Below are positions 37,461-63,508 of a stretch of 64,000 nt of DNA, piece by piece. Made by a program: the position numbers and the translations under genes. The notes under the pieces are model-generated. The model was not told the origin of the DNA and did no database searches. It saw only the letters and a list, made by a program, of their open reading frames with translations. How positions within the stretch are numbered: the first letter of the stretch is position 1; every line of letters begins with the position of its first letter. Source of the DNA: Thermococcus nautili (GTDB lineage Archaea > Methanobacteriota_B > Thermococci > Thermococcales > Thermococcaceae); contig NZ_CP007264.1 of NCBI RefSeq assembly GCF_000585495.1, forward strand, positions 1,798,001 through 1,862,000, read 5' to 3'.

Positions 37461-37474
37461 CTTTGGTGTTGCCG

Positions 37475-37939
37475 ATGGAGTGCCCCTTCTGCAGACCGCC
37501 GAAGGAACAACTCCTCTACGAGGATAGCCTAATAAGAATCCTGCTCGACGCTTATCCGGCCAGCAGGGGACACCTCCTCGTCGTCCCGAGGAGGCACGTC
37601 GAGCGCTGGGAAGACCTTAGAGACGATGAGAAGCTCGCCCTGATAAGGGGCATGGAGCTGGCGATGGAAGTCCTGAGGGAGACTCTGAAGCCGGACGCCT
37701 TCAACGTCGGCATGAACCTCGGAAAGGAGGCAGGTCAAACGGTCCCGCACCTGCATCTCCACGTCATTCCACGCTGGAGGGGCGACAGCAGAAACCCGAG
37801 GGGAGGCGTCAGAAAGGCCGTCCTCGATTTGGAGGACGAAAACTTAAGTTTGAAGGAGCGGTGGGTGCGGAACCGACTCAAACCCGAAGAGGTTTCACGG
37901 TTGAGGGAGGCTTTTAACGGGATCTTGGGTAGTGGTTAG
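37475..37939 (+). CDS. HIT family nucleotide hydrolase/transferase
   Basis: 154 residues. A zinc-type CPFC at the N-terminus and the histidine triad HLHLHVIPRW define the HIT family (Hint/Ap4A hydrolase-like). ATG 37475 is probably leaderless behind the TATA element at 37451. Specific substrate not determined. Confidence 0.85.
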   Translation: MECPFCRPPKEQLLYEDSLIRILLDAYPASRGHLLVVPRRHVERWEDLRDDEKLALIRGMELAMEVLRETLKPDAFNVGMNLGKEAGQTVPHLHLHVIPRWRGDSRNPRGGVRKAVLDLEDENLSLKERWVRNRLKPEEVSRLREAFNGILGSG

Positions 37940-38009
37940 TCTGTTCCGCAATATTTTTAATTTTTGGAATATCAGTTTCACACCGGAACAACATTTGGTG
38001 GTGATAAAA

Positions 38010-39957
38010 GTGAGAAAGGCGGTTGTGGTGTTTCTCATTGTGCTAGTGGTTTTGAGCGGGATGGTGCATCCAACTGTGAAAGCACTGTCAAAAACCCAAA
38101 CTGGGGAGAAGGGCGTAATTAACCCCTTCTTCGAGGGATACCTAAAATCCCTTCAGAACGCCACTCCTGATGAGCGGAAGGCGATTCTTGCCCTGATTGA
38201 GGTCCTCTTAAACGGGACTCTGAGCGGTGATGTCGTGGTTTCGGACTACATGAAAATCAAAAACGCCCACTGGAACGGGACTGACCTGATATTCCAATCT
38301 GGTGGTACAACGGAACCGAGCCGGCTTTAATCAAAACGTATCTGTGGCAGAACTCCTATTCTGCCCTCAGTGCAGTTGCAACGTCGGCCCGAGGGACCCT
38401 GACAAAGACCTCAAGGTTTACGTCAAATACGAAAGCATACTTGAAAAGGCCGGAATTGGGGGTGAAATCATCGGCATGAAAACGATTGAAGGCGTTAGCG
38501 ACGTCACGGTGAAAGATGGAACTACAGCATTCTCAATAGCAAAACCGAAAAGCCTGAAGGTTGCACAGGTCAGGCTGGAGAACGGAACGGTAATCAACGT
38601 AACCCTCGTAAACACCTACGGGGCTAAGCTGACTTCTCCAGGAAATGACGTTGTCGCGATGGCAAGCTCTCCAAGTTCCGCTGAGATTTTGAGCAATGAG
38701 ATTATAGGCAACGATGTAACGACACTTAAAGGTGATGTCAGAGTTGTAACTTCTTCCGGAGAAATGCCTCTGGAGTCAGGCCTTGTCGTCTCGTACTCTT
38801 CAGCTGACGACACTCCGGACGGCGAAATCTGGTTCGTTGTAACCACCAACGACGCCGACGGAATACCCTTCTACCGCGAAATCGAGCTGAACAGGGAGCT
38901 TGAGGCGAACGGATTTACCGTGCGCTTTGACCCAACGGACAAAAATAACGCCGACCTGAACGGTGACTACGACGGCGACGGCGTTCCCAACGCGGTGGAG
39001 CTTTTGATTGGGAAGGACCCGGCGAAGAGAGATATACTCGGCATTGAGCTGAACGTTTCCGTCGAGTGGAAGATGAGCGAGGAGGACAAGAAGAATCTGA
39101 TTTACAGCATCAGGAAGGCGAGTGACTTCATCTACGACTACACGGATGGCTACGCGATGATAACCAGGGTTACAATCTGGGATGACAAGAGGAACTGGGA
39201 CATGGCAGATGTTAGGGTTCACTACACTCACCCGTTACTACCCCAAACCCCCGCTCAGGTCTTTTACGATGGATGGCCACAGGCAATAGTGGGGGGATAT
39301 TGGATGAAAAGAAGCAAGAATGTAACTCTCAAAGAAAAAGGATACATCCACATCATGATGTCAAAGGAGTTTGAGAGGTTCAGCTATCCTGGAGGCACTG
39401 CAAGCATTGGCAGTGTAAGGTGGGGTAGAACTTTAGCTCATGAGCTTGGGCACTATGTCTTCTGGTTTGGGGACGAGTATGAGGACTGGAAACACAATAC
39501 ATACCTCTGGGGTTACATGACGTGCGATGATTTTGCGTGTTATCCCAACTGGGAATTGTACAACATGGCCCCACATTCGGTCATGAAGCACGAGTGGAGC
39601 TGGAGCGAGTTGAGCACGCCAAAGGATTATGAAAGATTCCATGAATACCTCTCAGAGAAGTTTGGGGACTGGAAAGACCACACGACAGACCAGTGGGGAG
39701 ATTCAAAAGATTCAGATGGGTGGCATTCCTCCGCCTGGGAAACACTGTACAAAATTCTCACAAGCAAGAATTTGAGAATAAAAGCATGCGTACCCCTTGA
39801 GGATCCTAGCACTAGCAAGGGAAGTTATTCGTGTAAAAAGGTGCCTATAATCATCTCTAACAAGATAGAAGTCCTCTTTGCTCCAAACTATAGTTTCATC
39901 CCCAAAACAGGCCCGTACACGGGTGTCAGCTATTTCATGGAGGTGATCTGGGGATGA
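38010..39957 (+). pseudogene. Frameshifted secreted metalloprotease with CLCA-like zinc motif
   Basis: One gene broken by frame changes. GTG 38010 (GGTGAT plus four bases; TATA-like ATATTTTTAATTTTT near 37951) begins a signal peptide (VVVFLIVLVVLSG), and that frame runs to a stop at 38328. The main frame is open from about 38302 to 39957. Between them the third frame reads WWYNGTEPALIKTYLWQN (38300-38353) and on to about 38390, more protein-like than the Cys-rich alternative. This suggests two missing bases, one near 38285-38302 and one near 38384-38400. The rest has a Ca-binding DLNGDYDGDGVPNAVE segment and zinc motif HELGHYVFWFGDEY (from 39439), whose spacing matches HExxHx6DEY of CLCA-type metalloproteases. 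Intact relatives would be about 648 residues. Sequencing error or true decay cannot be separated here. Confidence 0.7.
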
Positions 39958-40850
39958 GGTCTTTACTTGCTTTCCTCTTGATTCTGCTCCTCTTCTTTTT
40001 CGCCTACAACTTTTACACTTACCACAAGCTCTCCTCGGCAGAGGGAGCTTATAAATTGGCGGGGATTCCAAGCAGTGAAAGGCTCATTGCGGTCTACCAT
40101 GATAGCAATTTCTGGCAGTTCGCAACGTACAACCCTAAAACTCAGGAACTCAAAGTTTATTACATTAACCAGAATTCTCCGCTATTCTTCAGAACCAAGA
40201 AGACAAAAACTGTAAGAACGCCCTTAAACTATTCTCCACTTGCCCTTCATCTAAAACTTCTTGAAAAAGCACCAAAAGAAACTCCAGCGTTACTCTTCGC
40301 TGGAAAATGGTACACCAAAGAAAACCCGCCAAAATTCCCAACGGTTGAGCAAATTCTCAAACAGTACGACAACAAAACAATTCGAAGGATTGCCGTTCTA
40401 TATGCCAAAAAAGAACTCTGGATAGAAACATACCTCCAAGTGAACACAAGAGCCTATGAGGTAGGAACGAAGGATGTACTAGTAATTCCAAGTTTTGGAA
40501 ATACTTCCGAGGGAATCTGGGTTGTTGAGACTCCACAAGGAATGAACTCTACCAAAACTGTGTACTATCCAGGCACTAAAATAGTAGGAAATGCTACGCC
40601 AGTGTACTTAGGTTCATTTGTTTTGAACAGAAAATCTATTGAGAGTGCATTTTATGAAGCACTCTCAAACCTCAGCGAAATTATCAGCTTCGCAAAGATC
40701 GAGGTTTACTGCCTCTCTCCAAGAGCCGATGTTGATACAGTGGCTATCAAAAGATATTACTGGGGAATCTCCATGAAAAAATACTTTCAATTCCACTACC
40801 TTCACAGAGACACAATTAAAGTTTTGCAGGGATGCAAGACTACTCGCTAA
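39954..40850 (+). CDS. Membrane-anchored protein coupled to the metalloprotease
   Basis: 298 residues with one N-terminal membrane helix (SLLAFLLILLLFFFAYNFY) and a large, probably extracellular domain without recognised motifs. Its ATG overlaps the metalloprotease stop as ATGA. Composition is clearly more A+T-rich, with more AAA and ATT codons, than neighbours at 36-38 kb or 42 kb. A truncated relative of the same junction lies at 41055. It may be a protease partner, substrate or inhibitor; this is inferred only from pairing. Confidence 0.6.
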   Translation: MRSLLAFLLILLLFFFAYNFYTYHKLSSAEGAYKLAGIPSSERLIAVYHDSNFWQFATYNPKTQELKVYYINQNSPLFFRTKKTKTVRTPLNYSPLALHLKLLEKAPKETPALLFAGKWYTKENPPKFPTVEQILKQYDNKTIRRIAVLYAKKELWIETYLQVNTRAYEVGTKDVLVIPSFGNTSEGIWVVETPQGMNSTKTVYYPGTKIVGNATPVYLGSFVLNRKSIESAFYEALSNLSEIISFAKIEVYCLSPRADVDTVAIKRYYWGISMKKYFQFHYLHRDTIKVLQGCKTTR

Positions 40851-40932
40851 TTCGGGTGGCTAATATTGAGATTTTAGAAATTAAACGGAGGATAACAAGA
40901 AGTAGTCACATGCTACTGTTGACGGTTAATAA

Positions 40933-41058
40933 ATTGGGGATTATCCACCCCCGCAGAAGGTACTCCTCTCAATACCCCTTGACTTGGACAATAAATTCAC
41001 ACCCAAAACGGGCCCATACACTGGCGTTGGTTACTTCATGGAGGTGGTTTGGGGATGA
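40933..41058 (+). pseudogene. Remnant of a second metalloprotease gene (3' end)
   Basis: This open segment ends KTGPYTGVGYFMEVVWG, nearly identical to the C-terminus of the metalloprotease at 38010-39957 (KTGPYTGVSYFMEVIWG). Upstream the similarity fades and an in-frame stop occurs at 40930. At DNA level the match covers roughly 41000-41060 against 39898-39958. It is the tail of a decayed copy. Confidence 0.75.
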
Positions 41059-41378
41059 GGGTTAAGGTTTTGCTTGTTTTTCTCATTATTTTCCTCCTGC
41101 TTGGCGGATTAGCTTATACAGAGCACGCAAGGAACGAAGAGTTAAAGGATCCGAAATTCGTTTGTGAGCATTATCTAAAAACCTATGAGGTGGAAAACTA
41201 CACTCTCCCAGAGTTTACTTTGGAGCTTGATAGCGTCCTTAAATCAGTAGGCGTAGCTCTCGCTCTTCCTGAGGAGTTCGAGGGTCTTCAAGAGTCTCTC
41301 AACTTCTTCCCTCGGGTAATGCTCCTCGACGTCGCTCTCCGGGTCGAGCCTCCCAAGTTCTGCCCTGAGCTTTTCTAA
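41055..41378 (+). pseudogene. Truncated copy of the coupled membrane protein
   Basis: It starts with ATGAGG overlapping the remnant stop exactly as at 39954, and begins with a comparable hydrophobic helix (VLLVFLIIFLLLGGLAYT). After about residue 62 the frame runs into sequence that is the antisense of the minus-strand gene 41244-41531, so the natural C-terminal part is lost. Confidence 0.6.
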
Positions 41379-41531
41379 ATCTTCTAAATCCTCCTGAATC
41401 TCGACGGCCCTCTGGGCGAACTCGTAGCTTGTCATCGGGCTCTCAAAAATCCTCTGCTGATTGACGACGAGCGCTATTCTGAGGTGGCCTATCGTTTCCT
41501 CCAAAAGCTCAAGGAGTTCTTTGACCTTCAT
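41244..41531 (-). CDS. Hypothetical coiled-coil protein
   Basis: 95 residues, highly charged, with heptad-like helices (VKELLELLEETIGHLRIAL and EIQEDLEDLEKLRAELG). No signal or membrane segment. A strong TATA (41551-41562) stands about 25 bp upstream. Its 3' end marks the boundary of the degenerate metalloprotease copy. Function unknown. Confidence 0.6.
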   Translation of the reverse strand: MKVKELLELLEETIGHLRIALVVNQQRIFESPMTSYEFAQRAVEIQEDLEDLEKLRAELGRLDPESDVEEHYPREEVERLLKTLELLRKSESYAY

Positions 41532-60424: not shown

Positions 60425-61897
60425 TCAGCCCGAAGATTTCATGAACTCCTCAACGGCCTTCGCGGTTTCACGGTAGGTCTTTCCTGCAAGGATTACCACG
60501 TAGTAGTTCGGATTGTACGGGTTCTTGAGCTTGGCCACAATGTAGCCCTTGCTCATAAGCTCGTTCTTGAGCTCGTTGACCTTGTCTGCGCCGTAGGCTT
60601 TCTCAAGGACCTCCCAGGCCCTGTTGCTCACCCACCCTCCGATTATCACGACGTTTTTGTCCTTCGGAAGGCCGTTGTCGAGGATGTATGTGTCGTTGAC
60701 TATGAGGGAGTTTACATCGTTCGTCGCCGTTACGGCAGGCGCGGTAATCGAGACGCTCTTGGTGACGTACGTGCTCCTGACGAATCTGTACCCGAGGATT
60801 CCGGTTATTGCCCCGCCGTCTGCGGTTCTGTTGAAGACCGGGACGAGCTTTAGGTTCCATCCCTTGACCGGAATCTTAAGGGAGGAGCCCGAACCGATGA
60901 ACACCGGTGGGTATTCCGTTCCGTTGACGTGGAGGTAGAGCACGTATATGTCGTTCTCCGGCTGAATGTCCCAGACCCACTGGCCGCTGTAAACGTCGCC
61001 ATCGCTGTACTGTTTGGCTTTTTTGTAGAACCAGTAGTCGTAGGTCACCATCTTGGCCTGGTTTATTCCAACGAAAAAGTCTGTCGGGGTAAAGAGGAAG
61101 ACCTCTTTTGCACCACTTTTGAGAAGGTCATCAATGACAGTAGTTGGGTTTGAGGAGTACTCTTTGACCTCAAAGGTTCCGTTTGCGAGGACGTACATTA
61201 GGTAGTATGTGTCCTTGAGGAGGCTCGTAAGTTTTACGGTTCCATCTGGATAGTAGAGCTCAACAAGTGTCTTTAACTGCTTGGTGTCTATGTCTATAAA
61301 GTGAATCTTCCAGCTTCCCATTTTCACCCAGTCGCCAAGCGAGCTCGTGTTGCCGGTTGAGTACCGGTAGTCATAGAAGTACATGACATCTCTGCCCTCA
61401 ACGGTTGTATAGACAACTTTGTAGTTGCCCCCAATGTCGAGTGGAGTAGTGTTCTCGTTGAAAAGTATTTCAACGCTCCTATCAAGGAACTCGGCTGCGT
61501 GTTTGGTGGAATTGTAGAACACTTTTGAAAAGTTGACTCTAAGCACAACGGTCTTCCCAACGGGTTCAGTGCCAAGGTTCAGTCCCAGGTCGGGCATATC
61601 GTTGCTGGTCAGTATGTAAGTCTGATTTTCATCGGGTATGAGAATGCTGTGGTACTCAACAGGCACAGTAACGGTCTTTGTGTACGTCTTGGTTTCAATT
61701 CCATTGAGCACCAAAAATGCTCCGAGCTTTGCGCCTGCTATGGCGTCTTCATTTATATGGAGGGGCATGTTGTTAACAACTTTGGTGGTCGGGAGAACGA
61801 CTATTGTGTTAACCGAGTTGAACCCGGCACTTACCAAAGGCACGGCCAGAAGAATCCCGACCAAAAACACCATCATCGCAGTTTCAAGTCGCCTCAT
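60425..61897 (-). CDS. S-layer-like secreted protein
   Basis: 490 residues. Signal peptide (MMVFLVGILLAVPLVSAG), many Thr/Asn-rich beta strands with N-glycosylation sites (NST, NRT, NGT), and a C-terminal alpha-beta unit VVIIGGWVSNRAW...YYVVILAGKTYRETAKAVEEF that matches the end of thermococcal S-layer proteins and CW-binding-2-like domains. It is shorter than main S-layer proteins, so a surface paralogue is likely. ATG 61897 is fixed by GGTGAT plus four bases. Confidence 0.7.
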   Translation of the reverse strand: MRRLETAMMVFLVGILLAVPLVSAGFNSVNTIVVLPTTKVVNNMPLHINEDAIAGAKLGAFLVLNGIETKTYTKTVTVPVEYHSILIPDENQTYILTSNDMPDLGLNLGTEPVGKTVVLRVNFSKVFYNSTKHAAEFLDRSVEILFNENTTPLDIGGNYKVVYTTVEGRDVMYFYDYRYSTGNTSSLGDWVKMGSWKIHFIDIDTKQLKTLVELYYPDGTVKLTSLLKDTYYLMYVLANGTFEVKEYSSNPTTVIDDLLKSGAKEVFLFTPTDFFVGINQAKMVTYDYWFYKKAKQYSDGDVYSGQWVWDIQPENDIYVLYLHVNGTEYPPVFIGSGSSLKIPVKGWNLKLVPVFNRTADGGAITGILGYRFVRSTYVTKSVSITAPAVTATNDVNSLIVNDTYILDNGLPKDKNVVIIGGWVSNRAWEVLEKAYGADKVNELKNELMSKGYIVAKLKNPYNPNYYVVILAGKTYRETAKAVEEFMKSSG

Positions 61898-61928
61898 GGG
61901 CATCACCGTTCTTCATAGTGAATGTTAA

Positions 61929-61940
61929 CCTTTATAACCC
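61929..61940. promoter_or_regulatory. Bidirectional TATA element
   Basis: CCTTTATAACCC reads TTTATAAC on the plus strand and GTTATAAA on the minus strand. Each direction places initiation about 25 bp away, at the starts of the DUF2391 gene (61964) and the S-layer-like gene (61897). Confidence 0.5.
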
Positions 61941-61963
61941 TTCTCGGTGAAGCGTTTTCCGCG

Positions 61964-62485
61964 ATGATGAGTGAATCCAATGCTGACGGGATGATGAACC
62001 CCGAACCTGAGCGCGAGGTGGTTGAACTGGAGAAACTCCGGAAGAGCGTTGAAGAGCTGACAAGACAGGTTGCCAGGCTGGAGGAGAGGAGAAAGCCCGA
62101 CTCCCTTGGCTGGGACGATATAGCGCAGGAGATAGTTGGGGCGATAACCTTCGCGCTCCCCTTCATCTTCACGGGTGAGGTCTGGGACGTGGCAAAGGAC
62201 ATCTCGGTCGAGCGCTCGCTCGCCATCTTCCTCATGACGATTGGCCTCGCTTATCTCTTCCTCACCAAGGCCCAGCTCGGGAACCTGAAGCGCGAGGAAA
62301 TCTTCCACGTTCCCAAGAGGCTTATAACCGTCGCCCTCATCTCCTACGCCGTTTCCGCGGTTCTAATCTACCTCTTCGGCATAGACTACATAGCTCACTT
62401 TGACGCGGTTCAGTACTTCAACGCGACGGTCATAATAAGCACCTTCGCGGTCATAGGCGCGATAGCGGTTGACATGGTGAGGTGA
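61964..62485 (+). CDS. DUF2391-like membrane protein with coiled-coil N-terminus
   Basis: 173 residues: a charged coiled coil (about 10-40, EVVELEKLRKSVEELTRQVARLEER), then four membrane helices (DIAQEIVGAITFALPFIF; LAIFLMTIGLAYLFL; LITVALISYAVSAVLIYLF; TVIISTFAVIGAIAV). ATG 61964 is leaderless behind the shared TATA; ATG 61967 is equally possible. It is immediately followed, with no gap, by the TOPRIM gene, so the two are an operon. Confidence 0.65.
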   Translation: MMSESNADGMMNPEPEREVVELEKLRKSVEELTRQVARLEERRKPDSLGWDDIAQEIVGAITFALPFIFTGEVWDVAKDISVERSLAIFLMTIGLAYLFLTKAQLGNLKREEIFHVPKRLITVALISYAVSAVLIYLFGIDYIAHFDAVQYFNATVIISTFAVIGAIAVDMVR

Positions 62486-63508
62486 ATGAAAGTAGTAACT
62501 GGAAAGCGCTGGGAGGCCTTTGCCGATAGTGCCGTTCTCTTCCCAGAGTACTCGAAGAACCGCGACGAGCTGATTAACTTCGTGAACTCGCTGAAGGGCG
62601 ACGAGACCATCGTCACGGCCAGTTTAGAGCTGGTAGACCTGATAGCGAACCGCTTTAGGAAGGGCGAGGAGAACGTTCTAATCTACTCGGACACAGGGAG
62701 GAGCATAACGCTCAAGGAGACCTACGAGCTGAGGAAATACATCGAGTTCGACGTTCGCGGGGGCTTCTCGGGGGAAAATGCCAGGGCGAGCGTCCTCTTC
62801 GTCGAGGGGAAGACCGACGCCAAGTTCTTCAAGGCCGTCTTCAAGAAGCTCTTCGAGTTCAGGGAGAGCCGAAATGCCCCGTACCAGTTCAGGTTTATAG
62901 AGCGTGTCTTTGAGCGCGACAACTTCGACCTCCTCAGGCGGGAATCGGACGGGGCTTACCTCGCCGTTATCCCGAGCGAGGGCAACTCCGGGGTAATTAG
63001 AAACCTCGGAAACTTCCTAAAAGCCATGGAGGCCTTTGATTTCAGCGTTGACAGGCTCGGCGTTGCGGTTGACATAGACGAGAGCAGGGAAAGCGCCCTC
63101 GCCTCGATAGCGGGGAAGCTCTCTGGCTTTGAGCACGAAACGACCACGAGGGGCTACCTCGTCGGAAAAATCGAGGTGATTCCGCTCGTCATTGGACTGC
63201 CCTTCGAGGACGGGCTGATAGAGTGGAAGAAACCGACGGTCGAGGACCTGATGCTCCACCTCATCGAGCGCGAGGGACTGCTCGACAAGGTCAGGCCGGG
63301 CATTAAAGCCCTCAACGAGAGCCTCGGGAGAAAGCTCAAGCCCAAGGAGGTCATGTATCTGGCCTTATCGGCCTACGGCCACTGGGGCAACCTCGAGGGC
63401 TTCTACGAGCTGTTCGTCATGCGCTCCAGGTTCAGGAACCTCAAGGCGGTTCTGAGGGAAGCAGGGCTTATGGAGGGCCTCAGATACCTCGCATTCTCAG
63501 AGCGCTGA
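62486..63508 (+). CDS. TOPRIM-domain nuclease-like protein (DUF3226 type)
   Basis: 340 residues. A roughly 100-residue N-terminal domain precedes the TOPRIM motif VLFVEGKTDAKFFKAVF, with VAVDIDES as the second acidic motif. Related to OLD-type TOPRIM nucleases but lacking the ABC ATPase. ATG directly follows the stop of the DUF2391-like gene. Possible nucleic acid cleavage; the role is not known. Confidence 0.7.
   Translation: MKVVTGKRWEAFADSAVLFPEYSKNRDELINFVNSLKGDETIVTASLELVDLIANRFRKGEENVLIYSDTGRSITLKETYELRKYIEFDVRGGFSGENARASVLFVEGKTDAKFFKAVFKKLFEFRESRNAPYQFRFIERVFERDNFDLLRRESDGAYLAVIPSEGNSGVIRNLGNFLKAMEAFDFSVDRLGVAVDIDESRESALASIAGKLSGFEHETTTRGYLVGKIEVIPLVIGLPFEDGLIEWKKPTVEDLMLHLIEREGLLDKVRPGIKALNESLGRKLKPKEVMYLALSAYGHWGNLEGFYELFVMRSRFRNLKAVLREAGLMEGLRYLAFSER

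What the first reader, a model, noticed from the sequence alone, without database searches (positions are those of the whole stretch)
38010..41378. Secreted metalloprotease plus coupled membrane protein: a possible undescribed two-gene system
The zinc motif HELGHYVFWFGDEY has the spacing of CLCA-type metalloproteases (HExxHx6DEY) and lies in a signal-peptide-bearing protein with a Ca-binding DxDxDG segment. Its stop overlaps, as ATGA, the start of a one-helix membrane protein with a large outside domain. The same junction occurs again at 41055 in decayed form, so the two genes were duplicated as a unit. Both genes look A+T-rich. The partner could be an anchor, inhibitor or substrate.
Basis: partly seen in the sequence, partly recalled or inferred. 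Interest (0 to 1): 0.68.

Follow-up and report, generated by a model that had tools for sequence, protein, structure and literature searches.

The report
Swappable archaeal protease with matched partner
The window holds a damaged copy of a toxin-and-antidote-like island of heat-loving archaea (Thermococcus): a secreted zinc protease whose tip is swapped between strains together with a matching cell-surface protein, probably the antidote, a system for which I found no description.

Summary
But the protease gene is broken. Its signal-peptide piece is in another frame, after a 1-nt loss and a 1.9-kb deletion. Full-length relatives have 830-1331 residues. The second junction is the remnant of a different cassette, cut off at 41243, not a duplicate. 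The island (about 37882-41243) is an insertion; four relatives show the empty site.

The family occurs in 21 of 115 genomes of the phylum, all Thermococcaceae. The protease tip resembles a metzincin, closest to M64/igalysin, not CLCA. All 29 intact tips found are followed by a partner, against 112 partner genes; arrays and partner-only loci exist. Tip variation tracks the adjacent partner (r=0.79) but not the next one (r=0.01), nor does the constant stalk track it (r=-0.03). Two unrelated partner families, one with an N-terminal helix and one with a CGP-CTERM anchor, both look surface-anchored.

Best reading: a polymorphic-toxin-like island with a secreted protease toxin and cognate surface immunity proteins, in which displaced cassettes accumulate. 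It resembles VARTIG in layout but fails its C-terminal signature. The toxin function itself is inferred, not shown.

The parts
37463..37881 (+). left flank: HIT-family-like gene, conserved across the genus; its end differs from the empty-site version
   Evidence: matches 55 of 61 genomes of the genus; empty-site alignments end at 37878-37881; the name HIT is from sequence inspection
37882..41243 (.). the island: insertion between the HIT gene and the 95-aa gene
   Evidence: four related genomes join the two flanks within about 33-37 bp; right edge at 41244 in all four
38010..38299 (+). N-terminal piece of the main gene with signal peptide, in a different frame from the protease
   Evidence: 80% DNA identity to L034 4919-5298
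38300..38376 (+). lesions: 1-nt loss near 38300 and out-of-frame junction of a 1.9-kb internal deletion at 38368-38376
   Evidence: alignment to L034
38377..39219 (+). constant part of the main protein: end of the stalk, DYDGDGVPN Ca-binding-like motif, DYTDGYAMI block
   Evidence: 93% DNA identity to L034; no correlation with partner type
39220..39909 (+). variable protease tip; zinc motif HELGHYVFWFGDEY at 39439-39480, Met-turn candidate HSVMKH
   Evidence: invariant H159, E160, H163, Y172, M207 in A1; fold search gives metzincins; covaries with partner
39910..39957 (+). conserved tail GPYTGVSYFMEVIWG and stop, overlapping the partner start as ATGA
39954..40850 (+). partner: one N-terminal membrane helix plus beta-rich ectodomain, cognate surface protein (putative immunity protein); ORF intact
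   Evidence: AlphaFold2 pLDDT 91.3, pTM 0.90; dN/dS 0.18-0.23 against relatives
40996..41058 (+). relic of a displaced tip: tail FTPKTGPYTGVGYFMEVVWG and stop only
41055..41243 (+). truncated partner of another subtype; the ORF beyond 41243 is antisense to the flanking gene
   Evidence: 60-75% identity to partners in L039, L038, L043; empty-site edge at 41244
41244..41531 (-). right flank: conserved 95-aa gene

Best explanation
The window carries a decayed member of a polymorphic, toxin-immunity-like island family of Thermococcaceae. SHOWN by sequence: full-length relatives carry N-terminal signal-peptide-like segments, a long stalk (lamin-tail domain, Ig/CARDB-like and TSP3-like segments) and a C-terminal metzincin-like protease tip ending in a conserved tail; the next gene encodes a membrane-anchored protein that co-varies with the distal half of the tip; tip and partner are exchanged as a cassette between genomes, even between genera, while the stalk stays; displaced partners, often with a tail relic in front, accumulate downstream. 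INFERRED: the protease is exported and cleaves surface or extracellular proteins of competing, closely related cells; the partner, displayed on the producer's outer face, binds the variable half of its own protease and blocks it; old partners are kept as immunity against earlier or neighbouring variants. Here the protease gene is dead and the partner ORF is intact, which fits a cell that lost the weapon but kept the protection.
For: HExxHx6DEY residues and Met-turn Met conserved across 21 members, intact in the window. Metzincin hits and weak M64 hits. 29/29 intact tips have an adjacent partner; 112 partner ORFs >=220 aa, in tandem arrays. Loci with partners but no intact tip. Mantel r=0.78 over 23 tip/partner pairs. 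Sliding windows: r about 0 over residues 1-275, rising to 0.71 at 476-525. Controls: next partner r=0.01, constant stalk r=-0.03. Two ectodomain families without detectable homology, one with an N-terminal helix, the other with a signal peptide and CGP-CTERM anchor, so surface anchoring recurs. Cassette exchange: 95% DNA identity over 1868 bp between two genera; the window's tip and partner match genomes other than the one its stalk matches. Insertion with empty sites.
Against: No activity, target or inhibition is shown. Cassette linkage alone can produce tip-partner covariation: the near half of the ectodomain correlates more (0.73) than the far half (0.56). Pairs such as L043's second tip against the window (tip similarity 0.60, partner 0.03) show that similar catalytic halves can go with different partners. 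Usual polymorphic toxins swap unrelated toxin domains; here the tip is always the same protease family. The partner fold has no match in the PDB. No secretion or delivery machinery was identified.
Confidence: 0.6

Rival explanations
1. Self/non-self recognition or kin-adhesion system: the large protein is a surface adhesin that processes or recognises a matching surface partner on sister cells, without killing. Diversity serves recognition, as proposed among the VARTIG hypotheses.
For: Both proteins are predicted to be at the surface; stalk with LTD/Ig-like/TSP3-like segments as in cohesion proteins; strict cognate covariation; same kind of layout as VARTIG, for which this was proposed (PMC8416519).
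Against: An intact zinc site in nearly all tips argues for catalysis; excess of partners over tips and partner-only loci fit protection better.
Confidence: 0.2
2. Protease plus membrane-anchored substrate, anchor or maturation factor, co-inherited as a functional pair; the array is gene amplification of substrates.
For: Translational coupling (ATGA) and co-variation.
Against: Non-adjacent partners in the same array do not match the tip (r=0.01); two unrelated partner families; partners kept where the tip is gone.
Confidence: 0.12
3. Anti-viral or phage-receptor-variation module: the surface proteins vary to escape viruses, and the protease cleaves virus attachment proteins.
For: Hypervariability, surface location, island character.
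Against: No PADLOC match; no viral association tested.
Confidence: 0.05

Closest known systems
VARTIG modules of Thermococcales (arCOG07710; Makarova et al. 2021, PMC8416519)
   Same: Thermococcales islands; large secreted Ig-like protein first, then many small membrane proteins; variable C-terminus shared with shorter downstream copies; recombination between genomes
   Different: VARTIG ends in D[ND]NxxxG[GD] after a hydrophobic region and varies a distal Ig domain, with no HExxH protease reported there; this family ends in GPYTGVGYFMEVxWG and varies a zinc protease. A protein with the VARTIG signature (L104, ending DNNSVNGG) lies elsewhere in a genome that has this family, and matches it only over 78 aa, E 9e-4
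Polymorphic toxin systems, incl. metallopeptidase toxins Tox-MPTase1-5 (Zhang et al. 2012, PMC3482391)
   Same: Constant N-terminus, variable C-terminal enzyme tip, linked downstream partner, displaced cassettes
   Different: Tips are all one protease family; partners are outside-facing and membrane-anchored; bacterial delivery domains (RHS, WXG, PVC) not seen; the listed Tox-MPTases have no immunity protein given in that table
M64 / igalysin metzincins (IgA protease of T. ramosa; PMC12402451, PMC12237041)
   Same: HExxHxxx(G)xxDEY with Asp as third ligand, following Glu and Tyr, and Met-turn; best profile match in the PDB (E 0.033)
   Different: Below Pfam's level of recognition for most members; Gly at +8 only in the HELGHFVFG subgroup; hhalign to one archaeal M64 sequence not significant; no partner protein known for igalysins
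CLCA-type metalloproteases
   Same: HExxHx6DEY spacing, by recall of the CLCA motif
   Different: No CLCA Pfam family hit among 21 members; CLCA structure not compared
Colicin E-type nuclease/immunity pairs (from general knowledge)
   Same: One enzyme family with a variable region that sets the match to its own immunity protein
   Different: Extracellular protease and surface partner instead of nuclease and cytoplasmic partner

Membership tests
Polymorphic toxin system | constant N-terminal region with exchangeable C-terminal tip | tested here: met
   (93% DNA identity, then a different tip)
Polymorphic toxin system | downstream cognate partner gene moving with the tip | tested here: met
Polymorphic toxin system | displaced tips and orphan partner genes nearby | tested here: met
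Polymorphic toxin system | unrelated toxin domains on the same N-terminus | tested here: not met
   all tips found belong to one HExxHx6[DE][ED]Y family; the search query itself was this tip, so other tips would be missed
Polymorphic toxin system | toxicity and neutralisation by the partner | not testable with these tools
   needs experiments
VARTIG (arCOG07710) | C-terminal D[ND]NxxxG[GD] motif | tested here: not met
   absent in the last 60 residues of six full-length members; present in L104
VARTIG (arCOG07710) | Ig-like domains in a large secreted protein | tested here: inconclusive
   Ig-like/CARDB-like stalk by eye and weak Pfam hits; 78-aa BLAST match to L104
Metzincin metalloprotease | HExxH plus third ligand and downstream Met-turn | tested here: met
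   H159/E160/H163/M207 invariant, D170 and E171 at least 90%; the sequence alignment to IgA protease covers both motifs
Metzincin metalloprotease | fold | tested here: inconclusive
   the best Foldseek hits and most of the top 50 are metzincins, best E 8.3e-3, but TM 0.28-0.37
M64 / igalysin | match to PF09471 over its cut-off | tested here: not met
   best E 0.0056, 4 of 21 members
CLCA metalloprotease | CLCA N-terminal family match | tested here: not met
   no CLCA family among Pfam hits

The most novel reading that the evidence does not exclude
A so far undescribed archaeal weapon-and-antidote system in which one secreted metzincin protease is diversified by cassette exchange, protection is given by outside-facing, membrane-anchored immunity proteins of two unrelated families, and tandem arrays of displaced partners serve as an inherited record of past protease types.
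Probability: 0.45. Interest if true: 0.78.

Novelty: new variant of a known kind. Interest (0 to 1): 0.62.

Why it matters
Weapons and self-recognition in hyperthermophilic archaea are almost unknown experimentally. This family gives a compact, testable pair (protease tip and partner) in a group with genetic tools, with natural cognate and non-cognate combinations on which specificity can be measured. It would also show that protection against an extracellular protease can be worn on the cell surface, and that neighbouring arrays keep old antidotes. It gives a second Thermococcales island type beside VARTIG with the same logic but another variable part, so the toxin and recognition hypotheses made for VARTIG can be tested on an enzyme with a predictable activity.

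Tried and rejected
Pfam, NCBIfam and PDB searches with the window proteins alone: nothing. A single reading frame with a signal peptide: rejected. Duplication of the pair: rejected. CLCA membership: no support. VARTIG membership: C-terminal signature not met. My first partner profile took in ORFs with an out-of-frame translation of the conserved tail, and so merged two families; hhalign showed that the link lay only in that stretch, and the counts were redone on ectodomains. Partner fold search: only meaningless sliding-clamp matches with TM about 0.15. hhalign against one archaeal M64 protein: not significant. Anti-phage library: nothing. The 2019 survey of archaeal polymorphic toxins (mBio 00715-19) is not held, so a prior mention there cannot be excluded.

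Full report
WHAT IS IN THE WINDOW. The protease ORF, the ATGA overlap (39954-39957) and the 298-aa partner are as described. The signal-peptide piece (38010-38299) is in another frame. DNA alignment to the closest relative (genome G043, locus L034) shows why: 37985-38367 match L034 4919-5298 (80%), 38377-39219 match L034 7208-8050 (93%), and the 1.9 kb between them is missing; 1 nt is also missing near 38300. The relative's ORF has 1272 codons (its own signal peptide lies in a neighbouring frame). The window's main gene is therefore a pseudogene, although its zinc site and the partner ORF are intact. Partner dN/dS against relatives is 0.18-0.23, which describes the lineages and does not prove present function.

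THE UNIT IS AN INSERTION. In four related genomes the left flank (HIT-like gene) and the right flank (95-aa gene) lie about 33-37 bp apart, with the right edge always at window position 41244. The island thus spans about 37882-41243. Its second junction (40996-41058) is a tail relic followed by 63 codons of a partner of another subtype; the rest of that ORF to 41378 is antisense to the flanking gene. It is a leftover of a different cassette, not a duplicate. G043, G057, G060 and G014 have islands next to the same flanks; G031 has there two partner genes and no tip motif.

THE FAMILY. With a protein query 20 of 94 genomes of the family match; with the tip profile 21 of 115 genomes of the phylum, all in the family of the window. 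The named loci of a separate collection are all Thermococcus or Thermococcaceae metagenome genomes. Full-length relatives (830-1331 aa) have signal-peptide-like N-termini, in the long forms a lamin-tail domain, Ig/CARDB-like and TSP3-like segments with weak scores, and the protease tip. No Pfam or NCBIfam family covers tip or partner.

THE PROTEASE. Across 21 members H159, E160, H163, Y172 and M207 of alignment A1 are invariant and D170, E171 at least 90% conserved. The AlphaFold2 model (pLDDT 78.5, pTM 0.82) retrieves mostly metzincins (ADAMTS4, MMP-13, myroilysin), best E 8.3e-3, but TM-scores are only 0.28-0.37. Sequence profiles point to M64/igalysin: Pfam M64 in 4 of 21 members (best E 0.0056) and IgA protease as best PDB match, E 0.033, aligned over both the zinc motif and the Met-turn. 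The igalysin motif with Asp as third ligand, the following Glu and the Tyr is described in PMC12402451 and PMC12237041. All of these scores are weak singly; together they make a metzincin likely and igalysin kinship plausible.

THE PARTNERS. Every intact tip with zinc motif and tail that I found, 29 of 29, has a partner directly downstream, while 112 partner ORFs of 220 aa or more were counted. They form tandem runs, some preceded by a bare tail relic. Some loci hold partners with a relic or no tip at all. Partners fall into two families whose ectodomains show no significant homology (hhalign probability 23%): one with an N-terminal helix (the window's; model pLDDT 91.3, no PDB counterpart) and one with a signal peptide, Thr-rich linker and CGP-CTERM anchor. 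From the table, the second family goes with 10 tips, all HELGH[FL]VF; of the 19 tips with the first family only one is HELGHFVF. By my own count this is p about 5e-7 without correction for relatedness.

COVARIATION. Over 23 pairs, tip and adjacent-partner similarity correlate at r=0.78 (Mantel p 5e-5); part of this is the split into two partner families. Within the first family the correlation is near zero over the constant part (residues 1-275) and climbs to 0.71 at residues 476-525. Controls: adjacent partner r=0.79, next partner r=0.01 in the same 11 loci; constant stalk against adjacent partner r=-0.03. The near half of the ectodomain correlates at 0.73 and the far half at 0.56. Linkage within an exchanged cassette would also give such a pattern, so this shows that tip and partner travel together and differ together, not that they bind.

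EXCHANGE. The window's stalk is closest to G043, its distal tip and partner to G014 and G019. A cassette of 1868 bp is 95% identical between G024 and G001, which are in different genera. Conserved blocks on both sides of the tip (DYTDGYAMI and GPYTGVGY) offer homology for such exchange (inference).

MECHANISM. I take the pair to be a secreted protease weapon and its surface-worn antidote (confidence 0.6). Shown: export signals, protease signature, cognate exchange, excess and persistence of partners, predicted surface anchoring by two routes. Inferred: target on competing cells, inhibition by the partner, protective role of arrays. Recognition without killing (0.2) and a protease/substrate pair (0.12) remain.

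KNOWN OR NEW. Layout and lineage recall VARTIG (PMC8416519), but the C-terminal signature of VARTIG is absent in six members tested, and a protein that bears it sits elsewhere in a genome with this family. Polymorphic toxins with metallopeptidase tips are known in bacteria (PMC3482391). I found no description of this family in the held literature, but the 2019 mBio survey could not be read. I therefore rate it a new variant of a known kind.

Noticed in passing
L034 4866-5048 and L050 12832-13020: Two relatives also have the signal-peptide segment out of frame with the rest of the main gene; L050 has a run of nine G there. Repeated decay, phase variation or assembly error are all possible.
   Followed up: partly
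L104 (G032:C1:1702245): A VARTIG-like protein ending DNNSVNGG in a genome that also carries three islands of the protease family: two polymorphic island types in one cell.
   Followed up: partly
L047 141-1681 and window 61959-63496: In G019 an island with about 11 partner genes lies next to the orthologue of window 61959-63496, a different chromosomal place from the window's own island.
   Followed up: no
window 60425-61906 (-): A predicted secreted surface protein coincides with a local GC dip (0.465 at 61001-62000).
   Followed up: no
L091 (G031:C1:850000-858000): At the same hotspot as the window's island, two partner-family genes without any protease tip or tail motif.
   Followed up: partly
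L049 10779-11435 and L076 1095-1781: Partners of the HELGHFVFAVADEY tips were missed by the first profile and are found only with the CGP-family ectodomain profile.
   Followed up: partly
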